Shown here piece by piece: positions 12,609-21,822 of a stretch of DNA of 64,000 nt. Source of the stretch: Mycobacterium interjectum (lineage in GTDB: Bacteria; Actinomycetota; Actinomycetes; Mycobacteriales; Mycobacteriaceae). The DNA is taken from positions 62,001-126,000 of the forward strand of contig LQPB01000032.1 in NCBI GenBank assembly GCA_002102225.1. The letters run 5' to 3'. The translations under genes were made by a program, and so were the position numbers. Position 1 is the first letter of the stretch, and the number at the start of each line of letters is the position of its first letter. The notes under the pieces were generated by a model. It was given only the letters and a program-made list of their open reading frames with translations. It made no database searches and was not told the DNA's origin.

Positions 12609-12659
12609 CCGCGCCCAAATCCGCACTCTGAACGCACTTTCGAAGCCGTCAGCGCACAC
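12601..12659. repeat. Partial copy of an intergenic palindromic element
   Basis: TGCGCTGAC (12601-12609) and its inverted copy GTCAGCGCA (12648-12656) flank about 38 bases. The right half (12641-12659) matches the element at 38354-38373 except for a single-base gap. It lies between two convergent genes and contains both stop codons, so it may also limit read-through. Confidence 0.6.
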
Positions 12660-13896
12660 CCACCCTGTCCTCGGACCGCGGGGGCGGCGCGGGTTCCAGG
12701 CCGGGGGGCACCAAACGGGTCGGCACCAACGGCACCGCGGCCAAGGGAAACACCGCGCAAAGCGCCCAGGCCGCCGGATATTGGGCCGCCATGATCAGCG
12801 CGCCGAAGACCGGCGGCCCGGAGGCGGCGACGAGCCGCTGGGTGGTGTTCTGCACGCCCAGCGCGCGTCCGCTCCAGTAGGGCCCGGCCAACTCGGTGAT
12901 CGCCGTGGCCTCCAACCCGTTGTCGAGCACCGCGAGCACCGATACGGCGACCATCAGCAACACGTCGTAACCCGAGGCGTTGCCGTCGGTCAGGGCGAGC
13001 AGGAACAGCGCCGCCGCGGCAGCGATGGCGATGGTGCGGACCGGGCGCATCCGCGAGCCGACCCGATCCGACCAGCGGCCGACCGCGATTCGGCCCAGCG
13101 CTCCGAGCAATTGGGAGAACGTGATCAAACCGCCCGCGGCCGCCACCGACCAGCCGTGGTGATCCATCAGCCACACGAGCATGAACGTCGCGGTCACGGT
13201 CTGGGGCATCATCAACAGGCCGGCCACCGCGTGGATTCGCCACAGCACGAACGAGCCCCGATACGGGCTGGCCAGTTCGGCGTGGGCGGCCTCCCAGCGG
13301 GGTTTGCGGGGCGGATCAACGATTCCGATCGCGCTGGCGACCGCGGCCACCGTGCATATCACCGCGAGGAACATCAGCCCGCGGTGCGGGCCGCGTTCGG
13401 AGAGCTCCGGAATCATCAACGCGCCCAGGGCGATTCCCAACGGTTGTGAGGTCTGGCGGACGCCCATCGCCAGGCCGCGTTGGTGCGGCGGGAACCACGC
13501 GGACACCAACCGGCCGCCCGCCGCATTGCAACCCGCTGCGGCCATCCCGCCCATGAAGAGAAAGACGCCGACCATGAGCAGCGAATGCGCCGACGCCGCA
13601 GCGTAAGCCGCGGCCGCGGTGAGCAGGGAGCACGCCGTGAGCACAATCCGCTCGCCGACGCGGTCCAGCACATAGCCCCACAGAATCAGCGTGACGACCA
13701 TGCCCCAACTGGGCATCGATACCAGCAGGCCGGCCTCGGCCAGCGGAATGCCGCGGCGGGCCTGCAGCGAAGGGATAAGGAAAGCAACGCCATTGATGAA
13801 GAGAAAAGAGCTTGCCGTCACCCCCAACGAGATGGCCATGATCGACCATCGCGCCCCCGCGCCGAGTTCGAACGTGGTGTCCGTTTGCTTCAGCAT
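12649..13896 (-). CDS. Major facilitator superfamily transporter
   Basis: A 415-residue protein with about 12 predicted membrane helices. The loop between helices 2 and 3 (GYVLDRVGERIVL) carries the family signature and a related one (GRWSDRVGSRMRPV) recurs in the second half. Start MLKQTDTTFELGAGARWSIM. The substrate is unknown; helix 4 and 5 features (NAAGGRLVSAWFPPHQRGLAMG) resemble the organic-anion/oxalate-formate group. It stands alone, divergent from the COG4705 locus, and convergent with the acetyltransferase gene. Confidence 0.88.
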   Translation of the reverse strand: MLKQTDTTFELGAGARWSIMAISLGVTASSFLFINGVAFLIPSLQARRGIPLAEAGLLVSMPSWGMVVTLILWGYVLDRVGERIVLTACSLLTAAAAYAAASAHSLLMVGVFLFMGGMAAAGCNAAGGRLVSAWFPPHQRGLAMGVRQTSQPLGIALGALMIPELSERGPHRGLMFLAVICTVAAVASAIGIVDPPRKPRWEAAHAELASPYRGSFVLWRIHAVAGLLMMPQTVTATFMLVWLMDHHGWSVAAAGGLITFSQLLGALGRIAVGRWSDRVGSRMRPVRTIAIAAAAALFLLALTDGNASGYDVLLMVAVSVLAVLDNGLEATAITELAGPYWSGRALGVQNTTQRLVAASGPPVFGALIMAAQYPAAWALCAVFPLAAVPLVPTRLVPPGLEPAPPPRSEDRVGVR

Positions 13897-14082: not shown

Positions 14083-14101
14083 TCTCAGCGATCTCTCAGC
14101 G
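14083..14101 (+). promoter_or_regulatory. Predicted response-regulator site 1 (direct repeat)
   Basis: TCTCAGCG at 14083-14090 and again at 14094-14101, an 11-bp period that places both half-sites on the same DNA face, as in OmpR/PhoB-family operators. A -10-like TAGACA (14111-14116) follows after 9 bases and no -35 hexamer is present, as at activator-dependent promoters. Two further promoters in this locus repeat the layout exactly. Confidence 0.75.
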
Positions 14102-14115
14102 GGGCTCCCGTAGAC

Positions 14116-14934
14116 ATGAACAACAACCACACCGGAAGATCACTAACTGTGAATGACGTTGCGAAACATGCGCTGACCAAGGTACCGGCGGTCACGCTGG
14201 GCTTTTGGGTCATCAAGATCCTGGCGACGACGCTGGGCGAGACCGGCGGCGACACCGTCACGATGACGCTGAATTGGGGTTACCTGGCCGGCGTGGCACT
14301 TTTCGGCGTCGCGCTGATAGCGCTGGTCGCCGCGCAAATCCTCGCCCAGCGTTTCCACGCGAGTCTGTACTGGGCGACGATCGTCGCCTCGACGACGTTC
14401 GGCACGACGCTCGCCGATTTCGCCGACCGACAACTGGGCATCGGCTACACCGGGGGTTCGCTGCTGCTGCTGGCCTGCCTGGCGGCCACGTTGGGACTGT
14501 GGCGTTGGTCGCAGGGAACGGTGTCGGTGAACACCGTCTCGACGCCGAAGGTGGAGGCGTTCTACTGGGCGACGATCACGTTTTCGCAGACGCTGGGCAC
14601 CGCCCTTGGCGACTGGCTCGCCGACACCCGCGGAATCGGCTACGAACGCGGCGCGCTCGTGTTCGCCGCCGCCCTCGCCGCCGTCGTAGCCCTGTATTTC
14701 TGGACCTCGGTGTCGCGGGTCACCCTGTTCTGGGTCGCGTTCATCCTGACCCGGCCGCTCGGCGCGACGGTGGGCGATTTGCTGGACAAGCCCGTCGCCG
14801 ACGGCGGGCTAGCGCTGAGCCGCCCACTGGCTTCGGCGGTCATCGCGGCGGTCATCATCGCGTTGCTCGTCGTCCTGCCGCAGCGCCCCGGACGTCATCC
14901 CGGTCACGCGGAAGCCGCGACCGACGTAGCGTGA
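14116..14934 (+). CDS. COG4705 membrane protein, first copy
   Basis: A 272-residue integral membrane protein with about 8 helices built from four repeats of an aromatic-Trp / Gly-Asp signature: FWVIKILATTLGETGGD, YWATIVASTTFGTTLADF, YWATITFSQTLGTALGDWL and FWVAFILTRPLGATVGDLL. This matches the uncharacterised COG4705 family; function unknown. ATG 14116 falls inside the predicted -10 box, so GTG 14149 (VNDVAKHALTKVPAV), preceded by GGAAG, may be the real start. The response-regulator gene follows after 4 bases. A second family member lies just downstream of the regulator. Confidence 0.82.
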   Translation: MNNNHTGRSLTVNDVAKHALTKVPAVTLGFWVIKILATTLGETGGDTVTMTLNWGYLAGVALFGVALIALVAAQILAQRFHASLYWATIVASTTFGTTLADFADRQLGIGYTGGSLLLLACLAATLGLWRWSQGTVSVNTVSTPKVEAFYWATITFSQTLGTALGDWLADTRGIGYERGALVFAAALAAVVALYFWTSVSRVTLFWVAFILTRPLGATVGDLLDKPVADGGLALSRPLASAVIAAVIIALLVVLPQRPGRHPGHAEAATDVA

Positions 14935-14938
14935 CGAC

Positions 14939-15607
14939 ATGCGAGTCCTGATCGTCGAGGACGAGCCCCGCTTGTCGGCGACGTTGGCCATGGGGCTGAA
15001 GGCCGAGGGCTTCGTCGTCGTGGCCGTAAGCACTGGCGTCGAGGGGCTACACGAGGCGATGACGAGCAGATTTGACGTGGTGGTTCTCGACATCATGCTC
15101 CCCGGCCACAGCGGCTATGAGGTGCTGCGCCGGATGCGGACCCAGAACGTGTGGACGCCGGTGCTCATGCTGACCGCCAAGGACGGCGAGTACGACGAGA
15201 CGGATGCTTTCGACCTCGGGGCAGATGACTATCTGACCAAACCGTTTTCGTTTCGGGTGCTGGTGGCACGCCTGCGGGCGCTGGTGCGTCGCGGCGCGCC
15301 GGAGCGGCCGACGGTGTTGACCGCCGGGTCGCTGTTACTGGACCCGGCCCGGCACACGGTCCACCGCGGCTCGACCCCGATCGCCCTGACTCCGCGCGAG
15401 TATGGGCTGCTGGAGTTCCTCATGCGCAACACCGACGTGGTCGTGACGAAGGCCGAGATCTTGCGCAATGTCTGGGACGCGCATCACGACGGCCCCGACA
15501 ACGTTGTCGAGGTCTACGTGGGCTACGTGCGCCGCAAGATCGACGTTCCGTTCGGCACCAACACCATCGAGACGGTCCGGGGTGTCGGTTACCGATTGCT
15601 GGGCTGA
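14939..15607 (+). CDS. OmpR/PhoB-family response regulator
   Basis: A 222-residue regulator. Receiver domain: acidic pocket VEDEP (residues 6-10), phosphoacceptor Asp51 (VVLDIMLPG), Thr79 and Lys101 (LTKPFS). C-terminal winged helix from about residue 127 with LTPREYGLLEFLMRN and NVVEVYVGYVRRKID. It is probably co-transcribed with the COG4705 gene just upstream (4-base gap) and is predicted to bind the TCTCAGCG direct repeats. The likely partner kinase is encoded convergently at 16937-18358. The signal is unknown. Confidence 0.93.
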   Translation: MRVLIVEDEPRLSATLAMGLKAEGFVVVAVSTGVEGLHEAMTSRFDVVVLDIMLPGHSGYEVLRRMRTQNVWTPVLMLTAKDGEYDETDAFDLGADDYLTKPFSFRVLVARLRALVRRGAPERPTVLTAGSLLLDPARHTVHRGSTPIALTPREYGLLEFLMRNTDVVVTKAEILRNVWDAHHDGPDNVVEVYVGYVRRKIDVPFGTNTIETVRGVGYRLLG

Positions 15608-15633
15608 AGCCGGGCCCGCGTCCCCGGAGCGCT

Positions 15634-15652
15634 TCTCAGCGCCATCTCAGCG
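15634..15652 (+). promoter_or_regulatory. Predicted response-regulator site 2 (direct repeat)
   Basis: TCTCAGCG at 15634-15641 and 15645-15652, period 11. After 9 bases comes the -10 box TACGGT (15662-15667), and 7 bases later the GTG start at 15675. The geometry is identical to sites 1 and 3. Confidence 0.78.
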
Positions 15653-15661
15653 TTGGGCTTG

Positions 15662-15667
15662 TACGGT
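15662..15667 (+). promoter_or_regulatory. -10 box for the second COG4705 gene, leaderless
   Basis: TACGGT, ending 7 bases before GTG 15675. The missing -35 element is replaced by the regulator repeats immediately upstream. Confidence 0.65.
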
Positions 15668-15674
15668 CTGCCGC

Positions 15675-16925
15675 GTGACTGAGACAAGGCGATATGAGTC
15701 GCGTGAAACCCGGCTGGCGCTGAACAAAGTGCCCGCGGTGACAGTGTGGTTCTGGATCATCAAAATCCTGTGCACCACGGTCGGTGAGAGCTTCGCGGAC
15801 TGGATCAACGTCACGATGGGCGTGGGCCTGCATCGCACCGCGCTGATCTTCACGGCGGTGCTTGCCGCGGTCTTGGCGTGGCAGTTGCGCCTGAACCGCT
15901 ATGTGGCGTTCGTGTACTGGCTCAGCGTGGTCGTCTTCAGCGTCACCGGGACTCTCTACACCGACATCCTCACCGATGATCTGCGTGTTCCCCTCGCGCT
16001 GAGCACGAGCGTGTTCGCCCTCGCATTGGCGGTCGTCTTCGGTGTGTGGTTCACGCGGGAACGCACCCTGTCGATCCACAGCATTGTCACCCCGCGCAGG
16101 GAATTGTTTTATTGGCTTGCGGTGCTGGTCACTTTCGCGCTTGGTACCGCCGCCGGCGATTACACGCTGCAGGTGACTGGCTGGGGGCCAGGGGTCTCGG
16201 TGCTGCTGCCCGCCGGCATGATCCTGGCCATCGCGATCGGCTGGCGGATGGGCGCCAACGCCGTGCTGTCCTTCTGGCTTGCCTACATTTTGACCCGGCC
16301 GCTAGGCGCGAATCTCGGTGACTGGCTCGCGTCCCCGCGTGCCCGTCATGGGCTGGGACTCGGGACCGCCGCCACCAGTGCGATCTTCCTGATCGCAATC
16401 GTGGCCACCGTCGCCTACCTCACCGTCACTCGCGCCGACGTCATGGAAAGAGGCGGGCGAGGCCGCGCGCACGTCGCCACCGGGAATCCGGCGCGCGAAC
16501 GGGTCATGGTCGGCTACTACGTCGCCGTGGCCGCGACCGCGGCGGCGCTTCTTGTCTGGTCGGCCGCCCGGCCCCATGCCGTCATGGGCGGCGAGGAGGA
16601 ATCCGACACGACGGGAACCCCGCTGGCCGTCGCCCCGGGCCAGCTCGCCGCGCACTTCCCACCGGCCGAGATCGCGAAGTTCCACGCCATCGCTCAGTCG
16701 ACGCTGGACAAGGTGCGGGCGGGCGATCAAAACGGCGCTAAGGCACGAATCACCGACCTCGAACACGCCTGGGACGACGACGAATCCACCCTGCGGCCGA
16801 TGGACCAAAGCGCCTGGAAGGTCATCGACGGTCAAATCGACTCCGCCCTCAAGGCCGTGCGCACGCGTCATCCCGACCCGGCGGCAGAAACCCAGTCGCT
16901 GAACGCCATGCTGGCCGACCTTTAG
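15675..16925 (+). CDS. COG4705 membrane protein with C-terminal extracytoplasmic domain
   Basis: A 416-residue paralogue of the product of the gene at 14116. Residues about 15-245 carry the same four signatures: FWIIKILCTTVGESFADW, YWLSVVVFSVTGTLYTD, YWLAVLVTFALGTAAGD and FWLAYILTRPLGANLGDWL. It continues with a ninth membrane segment (VMVGYYVAVAATAAALLVW) and a soluble, mostly helical C-terminal domain of about 120 residues containing HAWDDDESTLRPMD and WKVIDGQIDSALKAVRTRHPD, which the first copy lacks. GTG 15675 is set by the leaderless promoter. Function unknown; it may sense or act in the envelope together with the two-component pair. Confidence 0.82.
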   Translation: MTETRRYESRETRLALNKVPAVTVWFWIIKILCTTVGESFADWINVTMGVGLHRTALIFTAVLAAVLAWQLRLNRYVAFVYWLSVVVFSVTGTLYTDILTDDLRVPLALSTSVFALALAVVFGVWFTRERTLSIHSIVTPRRELFYWLAVLVTFALGTAAGDYTLQVTGWGPGVSVLLPAGMILAIAIGWRMGANAVLSFWLAYILTRPLGANLGDWLASPRARHGLGLGTAATSAIFLIAIVATVAYLTVTRADVMERGGRGRAHVATGNPARERVMVGYYVAVAATAAALLVWSAARPHAVMGGEEESDTTGTPLAVAPGQLAAHFPPAEIAKFHAIAQSTLDKVRAGDQNGAKARITDLEHAWDDDESTLRPMDQSAWKVIDGQIDSALKAVRTRHPDPAAETQSLNAMLADL

Positions 16926-16936
16926 CGGCGGCCCCG

Positions 16937-18358
16937 TTAGCGGTTCGCGTGCAAGGGGAATGTCACGGTCATCGTGGTTCCGCCGCCGGGCCGGTCGCCG
17001 ATGGTGATCGTGCCGCCGTGGGCGCCCACAATCTCGGCGACGATCGCCAAGCCGAGGCCGGCGCCGCCGCCGCTGCGGGAGCGGTCGGAATCCAGGCGCA
17101 CGAAGCGTTCAAACACCCGGGTCCGTTCGGCCGGCGGGATGCCGGGGCCGTCGTCGCTGACGGTGAGTGTGGCCGCGGCATTGCGGCTGCCGACCTCGAT
17201 GGCGACGCACGAGTTCGCATGGCGGACAGCGTTATCCACGAGGTTGCGGATCATCCGGGAGATGGCCGCGGGGTCACCGGTCAGACGCGCCGGACGGATG
17301 TCGGTGTGGACCGCGCATCCCGCTTCACGCCGCGCGCGGGCGGCCTCGACCCCGGCGAGATCATCGAGGGACATCTCTTCGGTGTGCCGCAACAGATTTT
17401 GCTCGTCGGCGCGGGCGAGCAGGAACAGGTCCTCGATCAGCGTGCGCATGCGGTGCGCCTCGGGGAGCAAGGTGTCGATCGTCAACTCCGCGTTGAGCAG
17501 TTCGGGGTGGGCCTCGCCGACCTCCAACCCGGAGATGATGGTCGCCAGCGGGCTGCGCAGTTCATGAGAGGCGTCGCCAAGGAACCGTTGCTGCGCGCGA
17601 TGGCCGGCTTCGAGGCGCGACAGCATCTCGTTCATGGTTACCGCCAGGGCGGCGATCTCGTCGCGGCTGCTGGGTACCGGAACCCGTTCGGCCAGATCCG
17701 AAGTGGAGATTTCGGCCACCCTGCTGCGGATCGCGTCCACCGACTGCAGGGACCGGCGGACGAGCCAGTAGCTCGCGGCGCCCGCCACCGCGATGATGAT
17801 CGGGGCGCCGCAGGCCAACAGCAGCGCGACCGCCCACGCGGTCGCCTCGACCGCCTCGCTGCCCCCTCCGACAATCACCGTGTAATCACCGGACGGGGTT
17901 GCGACCCGCTGACCGCTGACGCGCATGTCGTCGTGGGGCATCACGTCATCCGGCAGGCCGCGGCGCAACCGGTAGCCGAACTGTGTCACCGGGACCATCG
18001 GTGTCTTCGGCGCGGATCCAGACCGCACCACCACCGTGCCGTCGGGCGCGATGACCTGAATCGCGACCACGCGCTGGTCGGTCGTCAGGAGGGCGCTGTC
18101 CACGTCGTTGACCGAATCTGTCCGCACGGCCTCCGCGATGGTGCGAACCCGACCCGCGGTCGCGTCGTCGACGCCCCCCAACAGCGTCCGGTACAGCAGC
18201 GCGTCCAGCCCCGCGCCGGCAAGGGTCAGCGCCAACAGCACCACGACCGCGGACACCGCGGCCGAGCGAGCGGAGATGCCCAAGCTTCGCCGAAACGGCC
18301 ACACGGCGGACCAGCGCACCCCCCGATTCTTGCAAGGCCCCGGCCGGGCGGGAAACAC
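16937..18358 (-). CDS. Sensor histidine kinase
   Basis: Membrane sensor kinase of up to 473 residues. One N-terminal membrane helix (about 32-50), an extracytoplasmic sensor region of about 120 residues, a second helix (about 173-199), HAMP, then the H-box GDASHELRSPLATI (His265), N-box MIRNLVDNAVRHA, DDGPGIP and GLGLAI. Domain order matches the family that pairs with OmpR-type regulators. The start is uncertain: GTG 18319 (VRWSAVWPFRR) would leave room for a promoter, whereas GTG 18358 nearly abuts the repeats. It is convergent with the second COG4705 gene and probably phosphorylates the adjacent regulator. Confidence 0.9.
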   Translation of the reverse strand: MFPARPGPCKNRGVRWSAVWPFRRSLGISARSAAVSAVVVLLALTLAGAGLDALLYRTLLGGVDDATAGRVRTIAEAVRTDSVNDVDSALLTTDQRVVAIQVIAPDGTVVVRSGSAPKTPMVPVTQFGYRLRRGLPDDVMPHDDMRVSGQRVATPSGDYTVIVGGGSEAVEATAWAVALLLACGAPIIIAVAGAASYWLVRRSLQSVDAIRSRVAEISTSDLAERVPVPSSRDEIAALAVTMNEMLSRLEAGHRAQQRFLGDASHELRSPLATIISGLEVGEAHPELLNAELTIDTLLPEAHRMRTLIEDLFLLARADEQNLLRHTEEMSLDDLAGVEAARARREAGCAVHTDIRPARLTGDPAAISRMIRNLVDNAVRHANSCVAIEVGSRNAAATLTVSDDGPGIPPAERTRVFERFVRLDSDRSRSGGGAGLGLAIVAEIVGAHGGTITIGDRPGGGTTMTVTFPLHANR

Positions 18359-18363
18359 CGCAG

Positions 18364-18393
18364 CTCAGCGGGCTTCTCAGCGGCTTCTCAGCG
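18364..18393 (+). promoter_or_regulatory. Predicted response-regulator site 3 (triple repeat)
   Basis: CTCAGCG at 18364-18370, 18376-18382 and 18387-18393. The last two read TCTCAGCG with the 11-bp period of sites 1 and 2. The -10 box TAGGCT (18403-18408) again follows after 9 bases. The site also lies in the divergent region before the kinase gene and could influence it. Confidence 0.78.
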
Positions 18394-18402
18394 ACCCGCT
18401 CG

Positions 18403-18408
18403 TAGGCT
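18403..18408 (+). promoter_or_regulatory. -10 box of the small-gene operon
   Basis: TAGGCT, ending 9 bases before ATG 18418, giving an almost leaderless message. Spacing to the regulator repeats equals that at the two COG4705 promoters. Confidence 0.6.
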
Positions 18409-18417
18409 GGCGCTGCA

Positions 18418-18732
18418 ATGAACGTCGAGGAATTGCGCCGAATACTCGCCGACCTTCCGGGCGAAATGCCCATCGCCGTTGAGGATTCCACGATGGGCTG
18501 GATGGGCAACGCAGCGCTCTATCTGGCGCCCGCGCACATCGACCGACGGGTCTCCGGCAACTATCTCTACGCCAGTCACGCCGACGGCGCCGACAACTGT
18601 CACGCGCTGCTGATCAGCAGCCTTCACCAATGCGACGAGAGGGTCGTGGACATCGGACCCGGGCCGGCGCGGCCGACGGTGATCGATGCGGACGACGCGG
18701 ACGTCGCCCTAGAGAGAGGCGGTCATGCCTGA
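18418..18732 (+). CDS. Small uncharacterised protein, first gene of predicted regulon operon
   Basis: A 104-residue soluble protein starting MNVEELRRILADLPGEMPIA, with VEDSTMGWMGNAALYLAPAHID in the middle. No signal peptide or membrane segment, and I do not recognise a characterised family. The N-terminus resembles short actinobacterial proteins of unknown function that begin with an EELRxxLADLP helix. The promoter carries the response-regulator repeats, and the 3' end overlaps the next gene by 8 bases, so it is expected to be induced together with the secreted peptide and the COG4705 proteins. Confidence 0.75.
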   Translation: MNVEELRRILADLPGEMPIAVEDSTMGWMGNAALYLAPAHIDRRVSGNYLYASHADGADNCHALLISSLHQCDERVVDIGPGPARPTVIDADDADVALERGGHA

Positions 18733-18949
18733 TTTACCCAGATTCGCCACCACGATGGTGGTCGGCGTTGCCATTGTCCTTGGCGCAGGTCTCTTCGGGT
18801 TGACACCGGCCGTAGCCGACCCGAGCGCGTTCAGCACCCTCAGCTGCAGCTGCCAACAGGCGGCTCCGGCCGGCAGCCCCGCCCGAAAGGAAGCGATCGC
18901 GCGCGGGATCCGGCAGGGTCTGTCGGACTTGCCGGCCGTGGCCGGGTAG
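18725..18949 (+). CDS. Small exported protein
   Basis: A 74-residue protein with a signal peptide (MPDLPRFATTMVVGVAIVLG, cut near PAVADP) leaving a mature chain of about 42 residues. The mature part has a CSC pair (LSCSCQQAAPAG) and a helical end SPARKEAIARGIRQGLSDLP. Its start overlaps the preceding gene by 8 bases, so both belong to one operon under the regulator box. Function unknown; similar small secreted proteins occur in many mycobacteria. Confidence 0.78.
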   Translation: MPDLPRFATTMVVGVAIVLGAGLFGLTPAVADPSAFSTLSCSCQQAAPAGSPARKEAIARGIRQGLSDLPAVAG

Positions 18950-18953
18950 CTCC

Positions 18954-21785
18954 TCAGGCGCGTTCGGTGACCGGCTGCGCGGCGTCGCCGTTGAGCGCCG
19001 AAGCGTCGGCCGGCAGCTCGAAGGCCGGGAACGCCGAACCCACCGCGGCCGTCGCCGCGTTGCGCTGGGCCTCCATGCGTGCCAGGGCCGTGTCGGTGAA
19101 CACCGACAGCCCGAGGTCGGGGTTGTAGCCGTGGATCTCCTTGACGTCCAGCTGCGCGAGGAAGTACACGATCTCCTTGGAGACCACCTGGCCCGGGACC
19201 AGCACCGGGAACCCCGGTGGGTAGGGCACCACGAACGTGGTGGACACCAGGGTCCTGCCTTCGGCCAGCCGCCGCCCGGCCATGCCGATCAGGACGTGCT
19301 CGCGGTCCGACTCTTCGTATCCCGCGTAGAACGCCGAGCGCATGTCGCCGAACATGCACGCGTCCACGGGGCGGAAGGCGACGTCGAACTCGCTGAAATC
19401 GGGCAGGTGCGGCAGGTCCTCGGTGATCTCCTCCACCCGGCGCTGCTGCAGGGCGCGGTCCTCCTTGCCGCCGATGGTCTCGCTGCGCTCGAAGTCCGTC
19501 GCGATGCGCCGCAACACGTCGAGCAGGTAATGCACGCTCGACCAGGTGACGCCGATCGTGAAGATCAGCAGCACGCTGTTGATGGAGGTCTTGTTGATCT
19601 GGATGCCAAAGCGGTCCATCAGGATCTTCTCGCGGAAGTCGTAGCCGTTCATGCCGGTCTTGCCGACGAACAGGGTGACGCGCGTCGCGTCGAGCACGAA
19701 CTGGTCGGAACGCCACGCCTCGTTCCACTCGGCCAGCGCGCCCTGCCTGACCTGACGGTACGAACTGACCGACGACGCCCGGAACTCGTCGGGCACCAGG
19801 TCGGACTCGTCGAGGATGCGGAACCACTTGCCGATCAGCCGGTCCTTGCGGACCCGGTGCCGGAACACCAGCGCCATGTTGTAGGTGTTGCGGACCAGCT
19901 CGAAGCCTTCGATGTCGACCTGGCGGCGCGCCAGGTCCAGCGACGCCAGCAGCTGCTGGTTCGGCGACGTCGAGGTGTGGGTCAAAAACGCCTCGGCGAA
20001 CGCGTCGCGGGTCAGCGCCTTGAAATCCTGGTCGCGGACGTGGACCATCGACGCCTGCCGGAACGCCGACAGGGACTTGTGCGTGGAGTGCGTGGCGTAC
20101 ACCCGCACCCGCGCGCGGCCGGGGTCGGGAAGCAGCCGGCGCTCCACCCACTCGGAGCGATCCACCCCCTCCATCTCCGCGGCCCAATCACGGTACTGGG
20201 CAGCGTATTCCGGTGACGCCAGCATCTGTTCGAGGCGTTCGGCGGAGATCATCGCGGTCCGCTGCCGGGCCCACGGCACCGCGGTGGCGAACGCGTACCA
20301 CGCCTCGTCCCACAAGAAGCAGATGTCCGGCTTGATCGCCAGCACCTCCTCCATCACCCGGCGCGGGTTGTACACGACGCCGTCGAACGTGCAGTTGGTG
20401 AGCAGCAGCATCCGCACCCGATGCAGCTGACCGGCGGCCTCGAGGTCCAGCAACGCCTTCTTGATCGTGTGCAGCGACACGGCCCCGTAGATCGCGTACT
20501 CGGGCAGCGGGTAGGCGTCCAGGTACAGCGGGTAGGCCCCGGCGAGCACCAGGCCGTAGTGGTGCGATTTGTGGCAGTTGCGGTCGATCAGCACGATGTC
20601 GCCCGGGCGGGTCAGGGCCTGCACGACGATCTTGTTGGCGGTCGAGGTGCCGTTGGTGACGAAGTAGGTGTGATTGGCGTTCCACGTCACGGCCGCCTTG
20701 TCCATCGCCGCCTTGATGTTGCCGTGCGGGTCCAGCAGTGAATCCAATCCCCCCGACGTGGTGGACGTCTCGGCCATGAAGATGTTGCGGCCGTAGAACT
20801 CCCCCATGTCCTGCAGGGTCTTGGAGTTGAAGATGCTGGCCCCACGCGCGACCGGCAGCGCGTGGAACTGGCCGACCGGGGCGGCCGCGTAGGCGCACAG
20901 GGCGTCGAAAAACGGTGTGCTGAAACGGTTTCGCAGGCCCGCGAGCACGGTGCTGTTCAGGTCGGTGACGTCGTTGAGCCGGTAGAAGGTGCGGTCGTAG
21001 ACGTCGGGTTCGTCCTCGGTCTCCGCGGCGATCGACTCGTCGGTGAGCAGGTAGAGGTCGATGTGCGGCCGTAGCTCCCTGATCCATTCGGCGCATTCGA
21101 CCCAGTCCTGGGTGTCCCTGGCCACCACGTCGTCGCCGGCCGGACCGAGCAACGTGTTCATCAGCGGCACCCGGTCGCGGGACCGCAGCGGCAGGTCGTG
21201 GCGGATGATCGCGGCCTGAATCTCCCCGTTCAGCGCGACCGCGGTGATCGCGTCCTCGATGCTTCCCACGATGAGCAGCTCGTACTGCACGTCGTCGGAC
21301 GGCCGGCGCAGCGCCCGCAGGCACTCGGCCAGACTGTCCGGCGCCGTCGCCGGGGCGTCGTCGGCGAGCAGCACCGTGTAGAACTGCTGCTGCTTGGCCT
21401 GGGCGACCAGCTCCTGCTCTGCCAGCGGCGCGGAGGTGTCGAAAAGCCCTGCGCGGTCGCCGTATTCACCCAGCAGCCGCACGGCCAGCGACACCTCCTC
21501 GGCGAGCCGCACCGTCGACAGCGCGTCGAGGTGGACGCGGAACGTCGCCAGGTTCGCCGCACCGGGGTACAGCCAATACCGCTCGTAGGCCGCCAGCCGA
21601 TTCATCAGCCGCTGCACCCGGCACACGTCGTGCGTCTTGTCCAGGCCGGCGAGGTCCACTTCGGCCAGGTGACGGCACGCGTCGTCGAGCAGGTTCCAGG
21701 TGTCCAGGCGCGTGTGCGACGGGTTGGCCACCGCGGCCAGCGCGGACACACGAAGCCGGCGCGGACGGGCGCTGTCTCGATCCAT
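18954..21785 (-). CDS. Orn/Lys/Arg decarboxylase family protein (Rv2531c-like)
   Basis: A 943-residue PLP-dependent fold-type I decarboxylase with an N-terminal wing/receiver-like region (about 1-300), the PLP-binding core with Lys in VYATHSTHKSLSAFRQASM, and the C-terminal lobe (PYPPGFPVLVPGQ). It closely resembles Rv2531c, annotated as an amino-acid decarboxylase; the amino acid cannot be decided. ATG 21785 (MDRDSARPRRLRVSAL) is preferred because similarity to Rv2531c begins there, although ATG 21803 is also open. It lies 37 bases downstream of the 33-residue membrane peptide. Confidence 0.9.
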   Translation of the reverse strand: MDRDSARPRRLRVSALAAVANPSHTRLDTWNLLDDACRHLAEVDLAGLDKTHDVCRVQRLMNRLAAYERYWLYPGAANLATFRVHLDALSTVRLAEEVSLAVRLLGEYGDRAGLFDTSAPLAEQELVAQAKQQQFYTVLLADDAPATAPDSLAECLRALRRPSDDVQYELLIVGSIEDAITAVALNGEIQAAIIRHDLPLRSRDRVPLMNTLLGPAGDDVVARDTQDWVECAEWIRELRPHIDLYLLTDESIAAETEDEPDVYDRTFYRLNDVTDLNSTVLAGLRNRFSTPFFDALCAYAAAPVGQFHALPVARGASIFNSKTLQDMGEFYGRNIFMAETSTTSGGLDSLLDPHGNIKAAMDKAAVTWNANHTYFVTNGTSTANKIVVQALTRPGDIVLIDRNCHKSHHYGLVLAGAYPLYLDAYPLPEYAIYGAVSLHTIKKALLDLEAAGQLHRVRMLLLTNCTFDGVVYNPRRVMEEVLAIKPDICFLWDEAWYAFATAVPWARQRTAMISAERLEQMLASPEYAAQYRDWAAEMEGVDRSEWVERRLLPDPGRARVRVYATHSTHKSLSAFRQASMVHVRDQDFKALTRDAFAEAFLTHTSTSPNQQLLASLDLARRQVDIEGFELVRNTYNMALVFRHRVRKDRLIGKWFRILDESDLVPDEFRASSVSSYRQVRQGALAEWNEAWRSDQFVLDATRVTLFVGKTGMNGYDFREKILMDRFGIQINKTSINSVLLIFTIGVTWSSVHYLLDVLRRIATDFERSETIGGKEDRALQQRRVEEITEDLPHLPDFSEFDVAFRPVDACMFGDMRSAFYAGYEESDREHVLIGMAGRRLAEGRTLVSTTFVVPYPPGFPVLVPGQVVSKEIVYFLAQLDVKEIHGYNPDLGLSVFTDTALARMEAQRNAATAAVGSAFPAFELPADASALNGDAAQPVTERA

Positions 21786-21822
21786 CTGGCCATTGTGGCC
21801 CACTTCGCCGCGCGCGCGATCA

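What the first reader, a model, noticed from the sequence alone, without database searches (positions are those of the whole stretch)
14083..18408. Three promoters share an identical response-regulator operator: a candidate new COG4705 regulon
Direct repeats TCTCAGCG with an 11-bp period occur at 14083-14101, 15634-15652 and 18375-18393. Each is followed by exactly 9 bases and a -10 box (TAGACA, TACGGT, TAGGCT), with no -35 hexamer. They precede the first COG4705 gene with its response regulator, the second COG4705 gene, and the two-gene small-protein operon. This is the expected signature of OmpR/PhoB-type activator sites, with the regulator controlling its own operon. I know of no description of this operator.
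Basis: partly seen in the sequence, partly recalled or inferred. Interest (0 to 1): 0.88.

Follow-up and report, generated by a model that had tools for sequence, protein, structure and literature searches.

The report
New two-component switch and its operators
Three promoters in this mycobacterial genome carry the same 19-base direct repeat, which is likely the docking site of a response regulator encoded between them that would switch on itself, two membrane proteins of unknown function and two small proteins; the repeat shares its core with sites at a sigB and an MprA-like promoter elsewhere in the genome.

Summary
Comparison across species supports a regulon. All 20 genus genomes (own included) with a regulator at least 84% identical have an exact site within 5 kb of it. 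Of 30 second-DUF347 genes, one per genome, 20 keep the operator, all 20 with TANNNT nine bases on; controls 4 of 545. At the first DUF347 gene the operator is absent in 23 of 23 loci lacking the regulator. Two corrections. The half-site is not of an unknown type: TCTCAG-N5-TCTCAG also lies upstream of sigB, an MprA-like regulator and an HtrA-type protease, so this is an MprA-box-like operator marked by a 3' CG. The first gene most likely starts at GTG 14149; ATG 14116 overlaps the -10. Regulator and PhoP share five of six base-contacting residues; the sixth (Ser to Val) lies by the one base that differs. Binding, activation and signal are untested.

The parts
14083..14101 (+). Operator 1, TCTCAGCG-ATC-TCTCAGCG, upstream of the first DUF347 gene and the response regulator
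   Evidence: exact match; score 14-16 of 16 in 21 of 31 regulator-bearing mycobacterial loci and 0 of 23 loci without the regulator
14111..14116 (+). Candidate -10 element TAGACA, nine bases after operator 1 (off-consensus at its last base)
   Evidence: sequence; register N9 enriched over 83 collapsed sites
14132..14138 (+). Likely Shine-Dalgarno stretch CCGGAAG of the first DUF347 gene
   Evidence: a GGAAG-like stretch recurs shortly before the start codon in the 18 relatives shown
14149..14934 (+). First DUF347 (COG4705) gene, revised start GTG 14149 (ATG 14116 overlaps the -10; an in-frame ATG at that place exists in only 4 of 18 relatives)
   Evidence: PF03988 E 1.4e-60 on the longer ORF; starts in 18 relatives; eight-helix model, mean pLDDT 91.1
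14939..15607 (+). OmpR/PhoB-type response regulator, the predicted binder of all three operators
   Evidence: PF00072 and PF00486; recognition helix; co-occurrence
15634..15652 (+). Operator 2, TCTCAGCG-CCA-TCTCAGCG, upstream of the second DUF347 gene
   Evidence: exact match; 20 of 30 homologous upstream regions, one per genome, score 13 or more of 16
15662..15667 (+). -10 element TACGGT, nine bases after operator 2
   Evidence: TANNNT at this spacing in 20 of 20 conserved D2 operators
15675..16925 (+). Second DUF347 (COG4705) gene with a C-terminal extension; predicted leaderless GTG start
   Evidence: PF03988 E 2.8e-52; the -10 ends 7 bases before the GTG
16937..18358 (-). Sensor histidine kinase (HAMP, HisKA, HATPase_c), likely partner of the regulator; maximal ORF, the true start may be further in
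   Evidence: next to the regulator in most loci that carry it
18363..18370 (+). Additional imperfect half-site GCTCAGCG, 12 bp upstream of operator 3
   Evidence: sequence; several relatives have three half-sites in an 11-bp register here
18375..18393 (+). Operator 3, TCTCAGCG-GCT-TCTCAGCG, upstream of the small-protein operon and in the divergent gap with the kinase
   Evidence: exact match; 15-16 of 16 at this place in many related loci
18403..18408 (+). -10 element TAGGCT, nine bases after operator 3
   Evidence: sequence; N9 register
18418..18732 (+). Small protein 1 (104 aa), no family above cut-off; first gene of the third operon
   Evidence: 88 homologues, the ones bearing a species name being Mycobacterium
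18725..18949 (+). Small protein 2 (74 aa) with a signal-peptide-like N-terminus (by eye) and a Cys-Ser-Cys motif, overlapping small protein 1
   Evidence: sequence; no family

Best explanation
The three 19-bp direct repeats are most likely operators of the response regulator encoded between them (14939-15607), which is predicted to bind as a head-to-tail dimer and activate three promoters: its own operon with the first DUF347 gene, the second DUF347 gene, and the two-gene small-protein operon. Shown by sequence: the identical repeats, the 11-bp period, the 9-bp distance to the -10, their conservation with the regulator and their absence at the first gene where it is missing. Inferred: when the neighbouring sensor kinase (16937-18358) is stimulated it phosphorylates the regulator. 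Two regulator molecules then sit in tandem just upstream of the -10, where a -35 would lie, and recruit RNA polymerase, as PhoB and PhoP types do. The regulator amplifies itself through operator 1. The outputs are two DUF347 membrane proteins that may be transporters, plus a small protein without signals and a secreted-looking one. The operator is a variant of the MprA-type box that shares the TCTCAG core and is set apart by a 3' CG. The signal is unknown.
For: Uniqueness of the three sites in the genome. In 198 genus genomes exact sites and the regulator co-occur (29 both, 5 site only, 46 regulator only, 118 neither; Fisher p 5.8e-10); 34 of 47 exact sites lie within 5 kb of a regulator gene; 20 of 20 genomes, own included, with a regulator of 84% identity or more have an exact site within 5 kb. 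D1 loci: regulator present 21 with and 10 without operator; absent 0 with and 23 without. Thirteen of those 23 genomes were searched whole: 13 of 13 have no regulator above 50% identity. D2 search not guided by the motif: 30 upstream regions, one per genome; 20 score 13 or more of 16, all 20 with TANNNT at N9; 6 more have a weaker copy (11-12) with TANNNT at N9; control windows 4 of 545. The two D2 genomes that do not appear among one search's regulator matches (G106, G139) both lack it. Over 83 collapsed sites TANNNT at N9 is 0.47, at any other offset from 0 to 29 at most 0.07. Recognition helix: N188, V189, E191, V192, Y193, Y196 align with PhoP N212, V213, E215, S216, Y217, Y220. Ser216 shares a water with the third base of TCACAGC (PMC4832192 section 8), the one base that differs here. 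Val holds that position in 83 of 83 regulator copies of 60% identity or more (80 loci).
Against: 46 of 75 regulator-bearing genomes lack an exact site (all with a best regulator of 79% identity or less), and 24 genomes have a site within one mismatch but no regulator; 61 of 131 such sites lie more than 5 kb from any regulator gene. Ten regulator-bearing D1 loci (nine in one group with M. colombiense, plus L093) lack the D1 operator. Eight of 28 D2 upstream regions in regulator-bearing genomes score under 13, two of them with nothing at that place. Counting independent changes on the D1 tree leaves 5 supported pairs: 3-4 go the expected way and 0 the other, sign test p 0.125, so that test alone is not significant. 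The same genome holds MprA-type boxes with the same TCTCAG core, so cross-binding is possible. Position favours activation but does not show it. The D1 -10 is off-consensus. No expression or binding data were available.
Confidence: 0.8

Rival explanations
1. The resident MprA-like regulator is the main binder, and these operators are extra members of the MprA cell-envelope stress regulon.
For: TCTCAG-N5-TCTCAG has six perfect matches in the genome and none in the backward control: the three here, and three upstream of sigB, an MprA-like regulator and an HtrA-type protease. The two recognition helices are alike and both have Val at the PhoP Ser216 position.
Against: MprA-type sites persist in the regulator-less genomes while the CG type does not: 13 regulator-less genomes hold 39 non-CG sites and 1 CG site, 11 regulator-bearing genomes hold 35 and 18, and 15 of those 18 lie near the regulator gene. 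None of the three MprA-type sites of this genome has TA at N9.
Confidence: 0.07
2. Both regulators act: the adjacent regulator is primary, and the MprA-like protein binds the same repeats with lower affinity, coupling the regulon to envelope stress.
For: Shared TCTCAG core and period and similar helices.
Against: The D1 operator is gone where only the adjacent regulator is missing, so an MprA-like protein alone does not maintain it.
Confidence: 0.2
3. The resident PhoP orthologue binds these repeats.
For: Same 11-bp period and six of seven bases of the PhoP half-site TCACAGC (PMC4832192); a PhoP orthologue with the unchanged helix is in the genome (L156).
Against: The base that differs is contacted through a water in the PhoP complex and differs in both half-sites; the operators follow the adjacent regulator instead. 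Whether PhoP is present in each of those genomes was not checked one by one.
Confidence: 0.03
4. The adjacent regulator binds the repeats but represses, or does both depending on phosphorylation.
For: The downstream half-site ends nine bases before the -10, close enough to block polymerase; regulator and first gene share the promoter.
Against: Constant spacing to the -10 across promoters and species fits polymerase recruitment better than blocking, which would tolerate variable positions.
Confidence: 0.1

Closest known systems
MprA box of mycobacteria (MprAB two-component system)
   Same: Direct repeats with the core TCTCAG at 11-bp period, seen here upstream of sigB, an MprA-like regulator and an HtrA-type protease. 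MprAB is reported to regulate sigB, sigE, acr2 and pepD directly (PMC3062566, passage). The published 19-bp, 8-3-8 architecture in M. tuberculosis is recalled, not read.
   Different: A 3' CG in both half-sites, a fixed nine-base distance to the -10, different targets, and loss when the adjacent regulator is lost while MprA-type sites stay. In Corynebacterium glutamicum a different MprA consensus, TKTTAAGAAM, is reported (PMC12113857, passages), so TCTCAG is not a motif of all MprA proteins.
M. tuberculosis PhoP operator (TCACAGC-N4-TCACAGC)
   Same: Direct repeat of the same period, six of seven bases, and five of six base-contacting residues (PMC4832192).
   Different: T instead of A at the third base and Val instead of Ser at the residue beside it; the regulator is 42% identical to the PhoP orthologue of this genome, which is a separate gene.
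TcrXY of M. tuberculosis
   Same: Two-component system of a mycobacterium, autoregulated, with small-protein targets (PMC10883919, abstract start and passages); that TcrX is of the OmpR family is recalled.
   Different: TCTCAG and CAGC do not occur in that paper's main text, and its authors found no binding consensus for the downstream regulon.
DUF347 / COG4705 membrane proteins
   Same: Both membrane proteins are full members of PF03988. One paper suggests a metal-export role in Frankia, from induction by lead (PMC4531530, passages).
   Different: No convincing solved relative was found for the eight-helix model. Of the 43 papers (30 listed) I opened only this one, and its passages do not mention a two-component system.

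Membership tests
OmpR/PhoB-family response regulator | Receiver domain followed by a winged-helix Trans_reg_C domain | tested here: met
   PF00072 E 4.8e-28 and PF00486 E 1.2e-24, both over cut-off
OmpR/PhoB-type operator | Tandem direct repeats about 11 bp apart placed just upstream of the -10 | tested here: met
   three sites and their relatives; the general rule is recalled, the PhoP case read in passages
OmpR/PhoB-type operator | Physical binding by the regulator | not testable with these tools
   needs a gel shift or footprint
MprA orthologue | Regulator gene next to its kinase and an HtrA-type protease gene | tested here: not met
   the HtrA-type gene lies behind a different regulator (L236, L237), whose product is 40% identical to this one (L151)
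MprA box | TCTCAG half-sites at 11-bp period | tested here: met
   six perfect sites in the genome, three of them here; that this is the MprA box rests on the neighbouring genes and recall
MprA box | Bound by MprA in this genome | not testable with these tools
   no binding data; CG-type sites are nearly absent where only MprA-type sites remain
PhoP orthologue | Closest PhoP-type protein of the genome, Ser at the 216 position | tested here: not met
   a separate gene (L156) carries the PhoP helix; this regulator has Val
Heavy-metal response regulator (TIGR01387) | Score above the curated cut-off of 279.2 bits | tested here: not met
   211.2 bits; the MprA-like protein scores 215.1, so the near match is uninformative
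DUF347 (PF03988) | Four repeats over the gathering score | tested here: met
   201.8 and 175.2 bits against 28.2, four stretches each
Known transporter fold for DUF347 | Clear structural match to a solved transporter | tested here: inconclusive

The most novel reading that the evidence does not exclude
A previously undescribed mycobacterial two-component system whose regulator belongs to the PhoP/MprA recognition-helix class and has its own operator dialect. It keeps the MprA core TCTCAG but is insulated from MprA by a 3' CG and a fixed class-II spacing. One helix residue (Ser or Val) would set the third operator base (A or T) across PhoP, MprA and this regulator. The module is patchily distributed in the genus, and when its regulator is lost its operators erode while the MprA sites stay. 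It would control a family of eight-helix membrane proteins of no known fold.
Probability: 0.45. Interest if true: 0.7.

Novelty: new variant of a known kind. Interest (0 to 1): 0.58.

Why it matters
It gives the COG4705/DUF347 membrane proteins, which have no established function, a regulator, a sensor, partner genes and a testable promoter, so the signal can be searched for with a simple reporter. It also offers a natural experiment on how paralogous response regulators in one cell keep their operators apart. PhoP, the MprA-like protein and this regulator have closely similar recognition helices and half-sites that differ in a few residues and bases, and genomes without the regulator show the operator missing or decayed.

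Tried and rejected
Chance or a mere repeat: rejected, since the exact pattern is expected 0.006 times in the genome and tracks the regulator across species.

Metal response by profile name: TIGR01387 and TIGR01386 are the top NCBIfam matches of regulator and kinase, both under cut-off. The MprA-like protein scores just as high on TIGR01387, so I draw nothing from it.

Function of DUF347 from structure: the model is confident (mean pLDDT 91.1) but neither Foldseek nor VIA-align gave a convincing relative. Small protein 1 folded poorly (mean pLDDT 48.3). The D2 tail and the small proteins gave only sub-threshold Pfam hits or none even at E 5.

Proteobacterial and other non-mycobacterial DUF347 relatives: 23 of the 79 loci; none has the operator at the D1 homologue (best score 11), so the operator is not carried along with DUF347.

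Sites far from the regulator: 61 of 131 matches within one mismatch lie more than 5 kb from any regulator gene, and several exact ones have no -10 at N9 (L213-L216, L219). I treat these as mostly chance or separate. Two exact ones without the regulator close by do look like promoters (L212, L217) and are unexplained.

Biased count set aside: a first count of D2 upstream regions gave 21 of 24 (20 with TANNNT at N9, controls 10 of 480), but some of those stretches had been fetched because one search showed a site there. I therefore searched D2 without the motif and use that count.

Literature: eight word searches on this question gave no paper in the listings whose title or abstract start describes this operator or a DUF347 regulon; COG4705 had 0 occurrences in the 30 papers listed. 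The library lacks most subscription journals. The original MprA-box paper (He and Zahrt 2005) is known to me only from recall and a reference list. The PhoP consensus paper and He et al. 2006 were not held. A ninth search was for the mycobacterial -10 motif. No paper was read whole: section 8 of PMC4832192 was read, the others in passages.

Rows dropped: two of 56 mycobacterial loci were left out before the count (L103 for under 3 kb of downstream sequence, L074 by name as a 4-kb contig with little upstream sequence). In one search sites were collapsed from 112 to 83 at 80% identity. In one search the tree held 54 loci and the window. In some searches, 39 matches in 31 genomes gave 30 loci, one each for 30 genomes (own included); G157 had none. 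Searches used 24 genomes: the 13 and 11 of the other 19 genomes with a regulator of 84% or more. The 83 regulator copies may hold the same genome twice under different loci.
Full report
What is in the window. The exact 19-bp repeat TCTCAGCG-N3-TCTCAGCG stands at 14083, 15634 and 18375, all on the + strand. None of 100 shuffles of the window contains a copy, and the expected number in the whole genome is about 0.006. The 5.90-Mb genome has exactly these three perfect copies, none with one mismatch and three with two. Each is followed by nine bases and TAGACA, TACGGT or TAGGCT. Downstream genes are a DUF347 gene with an OmpR/PhoB-type response regulator, a second DUF347 gene, and two small genes. 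A histidine-kinase gene runs the other way from the third site.

Refined anatomy. The reported ATG of the first DUF347 gene (14116) overlaps the -10 hexamer. In 18 related promoters an in-frame ATG at that place exists in only 4, while a GGAAG-like stretch recurs and a GTG or ATG lies 36-41 bases after the -10 start in 15. I therefore place the start at GTG 14149. The second DUF347 gene most likely begins leaderless at GTG 15675, with the -10 ending seven bases before it. In about half of the relatives of the first promoter a second hexamer (such as TACCGT or TACCCT) lies at N4, so the true -10 there is not certain. The missing -35 carries no weight, because in M. tuberculosis TANNNT promoters were found without any conserved -35 (PMC3898074, passages).

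Conservation and the regulator. In 198 genus genomes a site within one mismatch occurs in 71 (131 sites, against 9 for the backward pattern by my count of the rows). The regulator (E at most 1e-70) occurs in 75. Exact sites occur in 34 genomes: 29 with and 5 without the regulator; of genomes without an exact site 46 have the regulator and 118 do not (p 5.8e-10). All 20 genomes (own included) with a regulator of at least 84% identity have an exact site within 5 kb. Against: the 46 regulator-bearing genomes without an exact copy all have regulators of 79% identity or less, and 24 genomes have a near copy without the regulator.

Among 54 mycobacterial loci of the first DUF347 gene (54 of 56 counted), the operator is present in 21 of 31 loci with the regulator and in 0 of 23 without it. 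Thirteen of those 23 genomes were searched whole, and none holds a regulator above 50% identity. Nine of the ten regulator-bearing loci without a D1 operator form one group with M. colombiense; four of them (L058, L061, L076, L077) have a weaker copy (14 of 16) between D1 and the regulator. On the D1 tree the labels change 9-10 times, but only five pairs rest on well-supported branches. In 3-4 of them the operator follows the regulator and in none the reverse, p 0.125. The association is consistent but not proven by that test alone.

The second DUF347 gene gives the deepest conservation. A search with its protein alone, not with the motif, found it in 31 of 198 genomes. Of 30 upstream regions, one per genome, 20 score 13 or more of 16, and all 20 have TANNNT exactly nine bases on; six more have a weaker copy (11-12) with TANNNT at the same distance, and four have nothing at that place. 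Control windows of the same loci reach 13 in 4 of 545. Two of the four empty ones (L265 in G106, L270 in G139) come from genomes that are not among the regulator matches, though these assemblies are 91% and 93% complete; the other two (L249, L268) have the regulator. Identity of these D2 proteins to the window's is 58-70% apart from the window's own. Across 83 collapsed strong sites of all kinds, TANNNT is at N9 in 47% and at no other offset from 0 to 29 above 7%.

How it likely works. The regulator's recognition helix matches that of PhoP at five of the six residues that contact bases. The exception is Ser216, replaced by Val192. In the PhoP-DNA complex Ser216 shares a water with the third base of TCACAGC (PMC4832192, section 8); that base is T here, the only difference in the seven-base half-site. 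Val is found in all 83 regulator copies examined. PhoP binds as a tandem dimer with a strict 4-bp spacer and also binds three- and four-repeat DNA with higher affinity, and the third operator often has a third half-site in relatives. I infer tandem binding upstream of the -10 and class-II-type activation. This is not shown.

Closest known operator. In the same genome TCTCAG-N5-TCTCAG has six perfect matches and the backward control none. The other three lie upstream of SigB (NF005920 over cut-off), of a response regulator with a kinase-like frame behind it (by eye), and of an HtrA-type protease gene about 2.2 kb further on (HtrA families match under their cut-offs, the frame being cut by the locus end). 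I identify this regulator as MprA from the neighbourhood and from recall; MprAB is reported to control sigB and pepD directly (PMC3062566, passage). In Corynebacterium glutamicum a different MprA consensus is reported (PMC12113857). In 13 regulator-less genomes nearly only MprA-type copies remain (39 non-CG, 1 CG), while 11 regulator-bearing genomes have 18 CG and 35 non-CG copies, 15 of the 18 near the regulator. The new operator is thus an MprA-like box with a 3' CG. The MprA-like helix also has Val at the Ser216 position, so three regulators agree with the proposed residue-base pair. What reads the CG is unexplained: the base-contacting residues do not obviously account for it.

The outputs. 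Both DUF347 proteins have four repeats; the first is modelled as eight helices with high confidence, with no convincing solved relative. Invariant residues include Glu31, Asp90, Glu136, Asp155 and Arg202 of the first protein, which fits a transporter but does not show it. A Frankia study reports DUF347 genes among those induced by lead and proposes metal export (PMC4531530, passages). The signal here is unknown.

Verdict. The regulon reading is well supported by comparison across species, and the claim of an operator without precedent is corrected to a new variant of the MprA/PhoP class.

Noticed in passing
window 12649-13896 (-) and 18954-21803 (-): An MFS transporter and an Orn/Lys/Arg-type decarboxylase flank the module and keep their places in many relatives, with or without the regulator-kinase block between them.
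   Followed up: partly
L083 (Streptomyces sp. AcH 505 contig) versus L079, L080, L081, L085: A contig filed under Streptomyces has the same gene order and near-identical match pattern as Afipia/Bradyrhizobiaceae contigs; likely contamination of that assembly.
   Followed up: no
L079-L116, non-mycobacterial loci: DUF347 proteins up to about 80% identical to the mycobacterial one occur in Alphaproteobacteria, sometimes with a distant response regulator and kinase close by; suggests gene transfer and perhaps a wider link of DUF347 to two-component systems.
   Followed up: partly
L203 (G035:C26), regulator copy: One of six regulator copies in this genome has an internal stop codon in the recognition helix; this species has several paralogous regulator-kinase-DUF347 blocks.
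   Followed up: no
L041, L050, L055: Three regulator-less genomes keep decayed operators: mutated half-sites, a changed 10-bp spacing in one, and the same T-to-C change in the small-protein operator of all three, as if from one loss event.
   Followed up: partly
L207, L208, L221, L222 and others: A second class of sites has CANNNT instead of TANNNT at the nine-base position, often after a CTG; these may be weaker promoters or ones of another sigma factor.
   Followed up: no
L245-L273, D2 promoters of distant relatives: The downstream half-site drifts to CTTCAGCG or GTTCAGCG while the upstream one mostly stays TCTCAGCG, as if the two half-sites were under unequal constraint.
   Followed up: no
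window 18725-18949: The second small protein carries a signal-peptide-like start and a Cys-Ser-Cys motif; function unknown.
   Followed up: no
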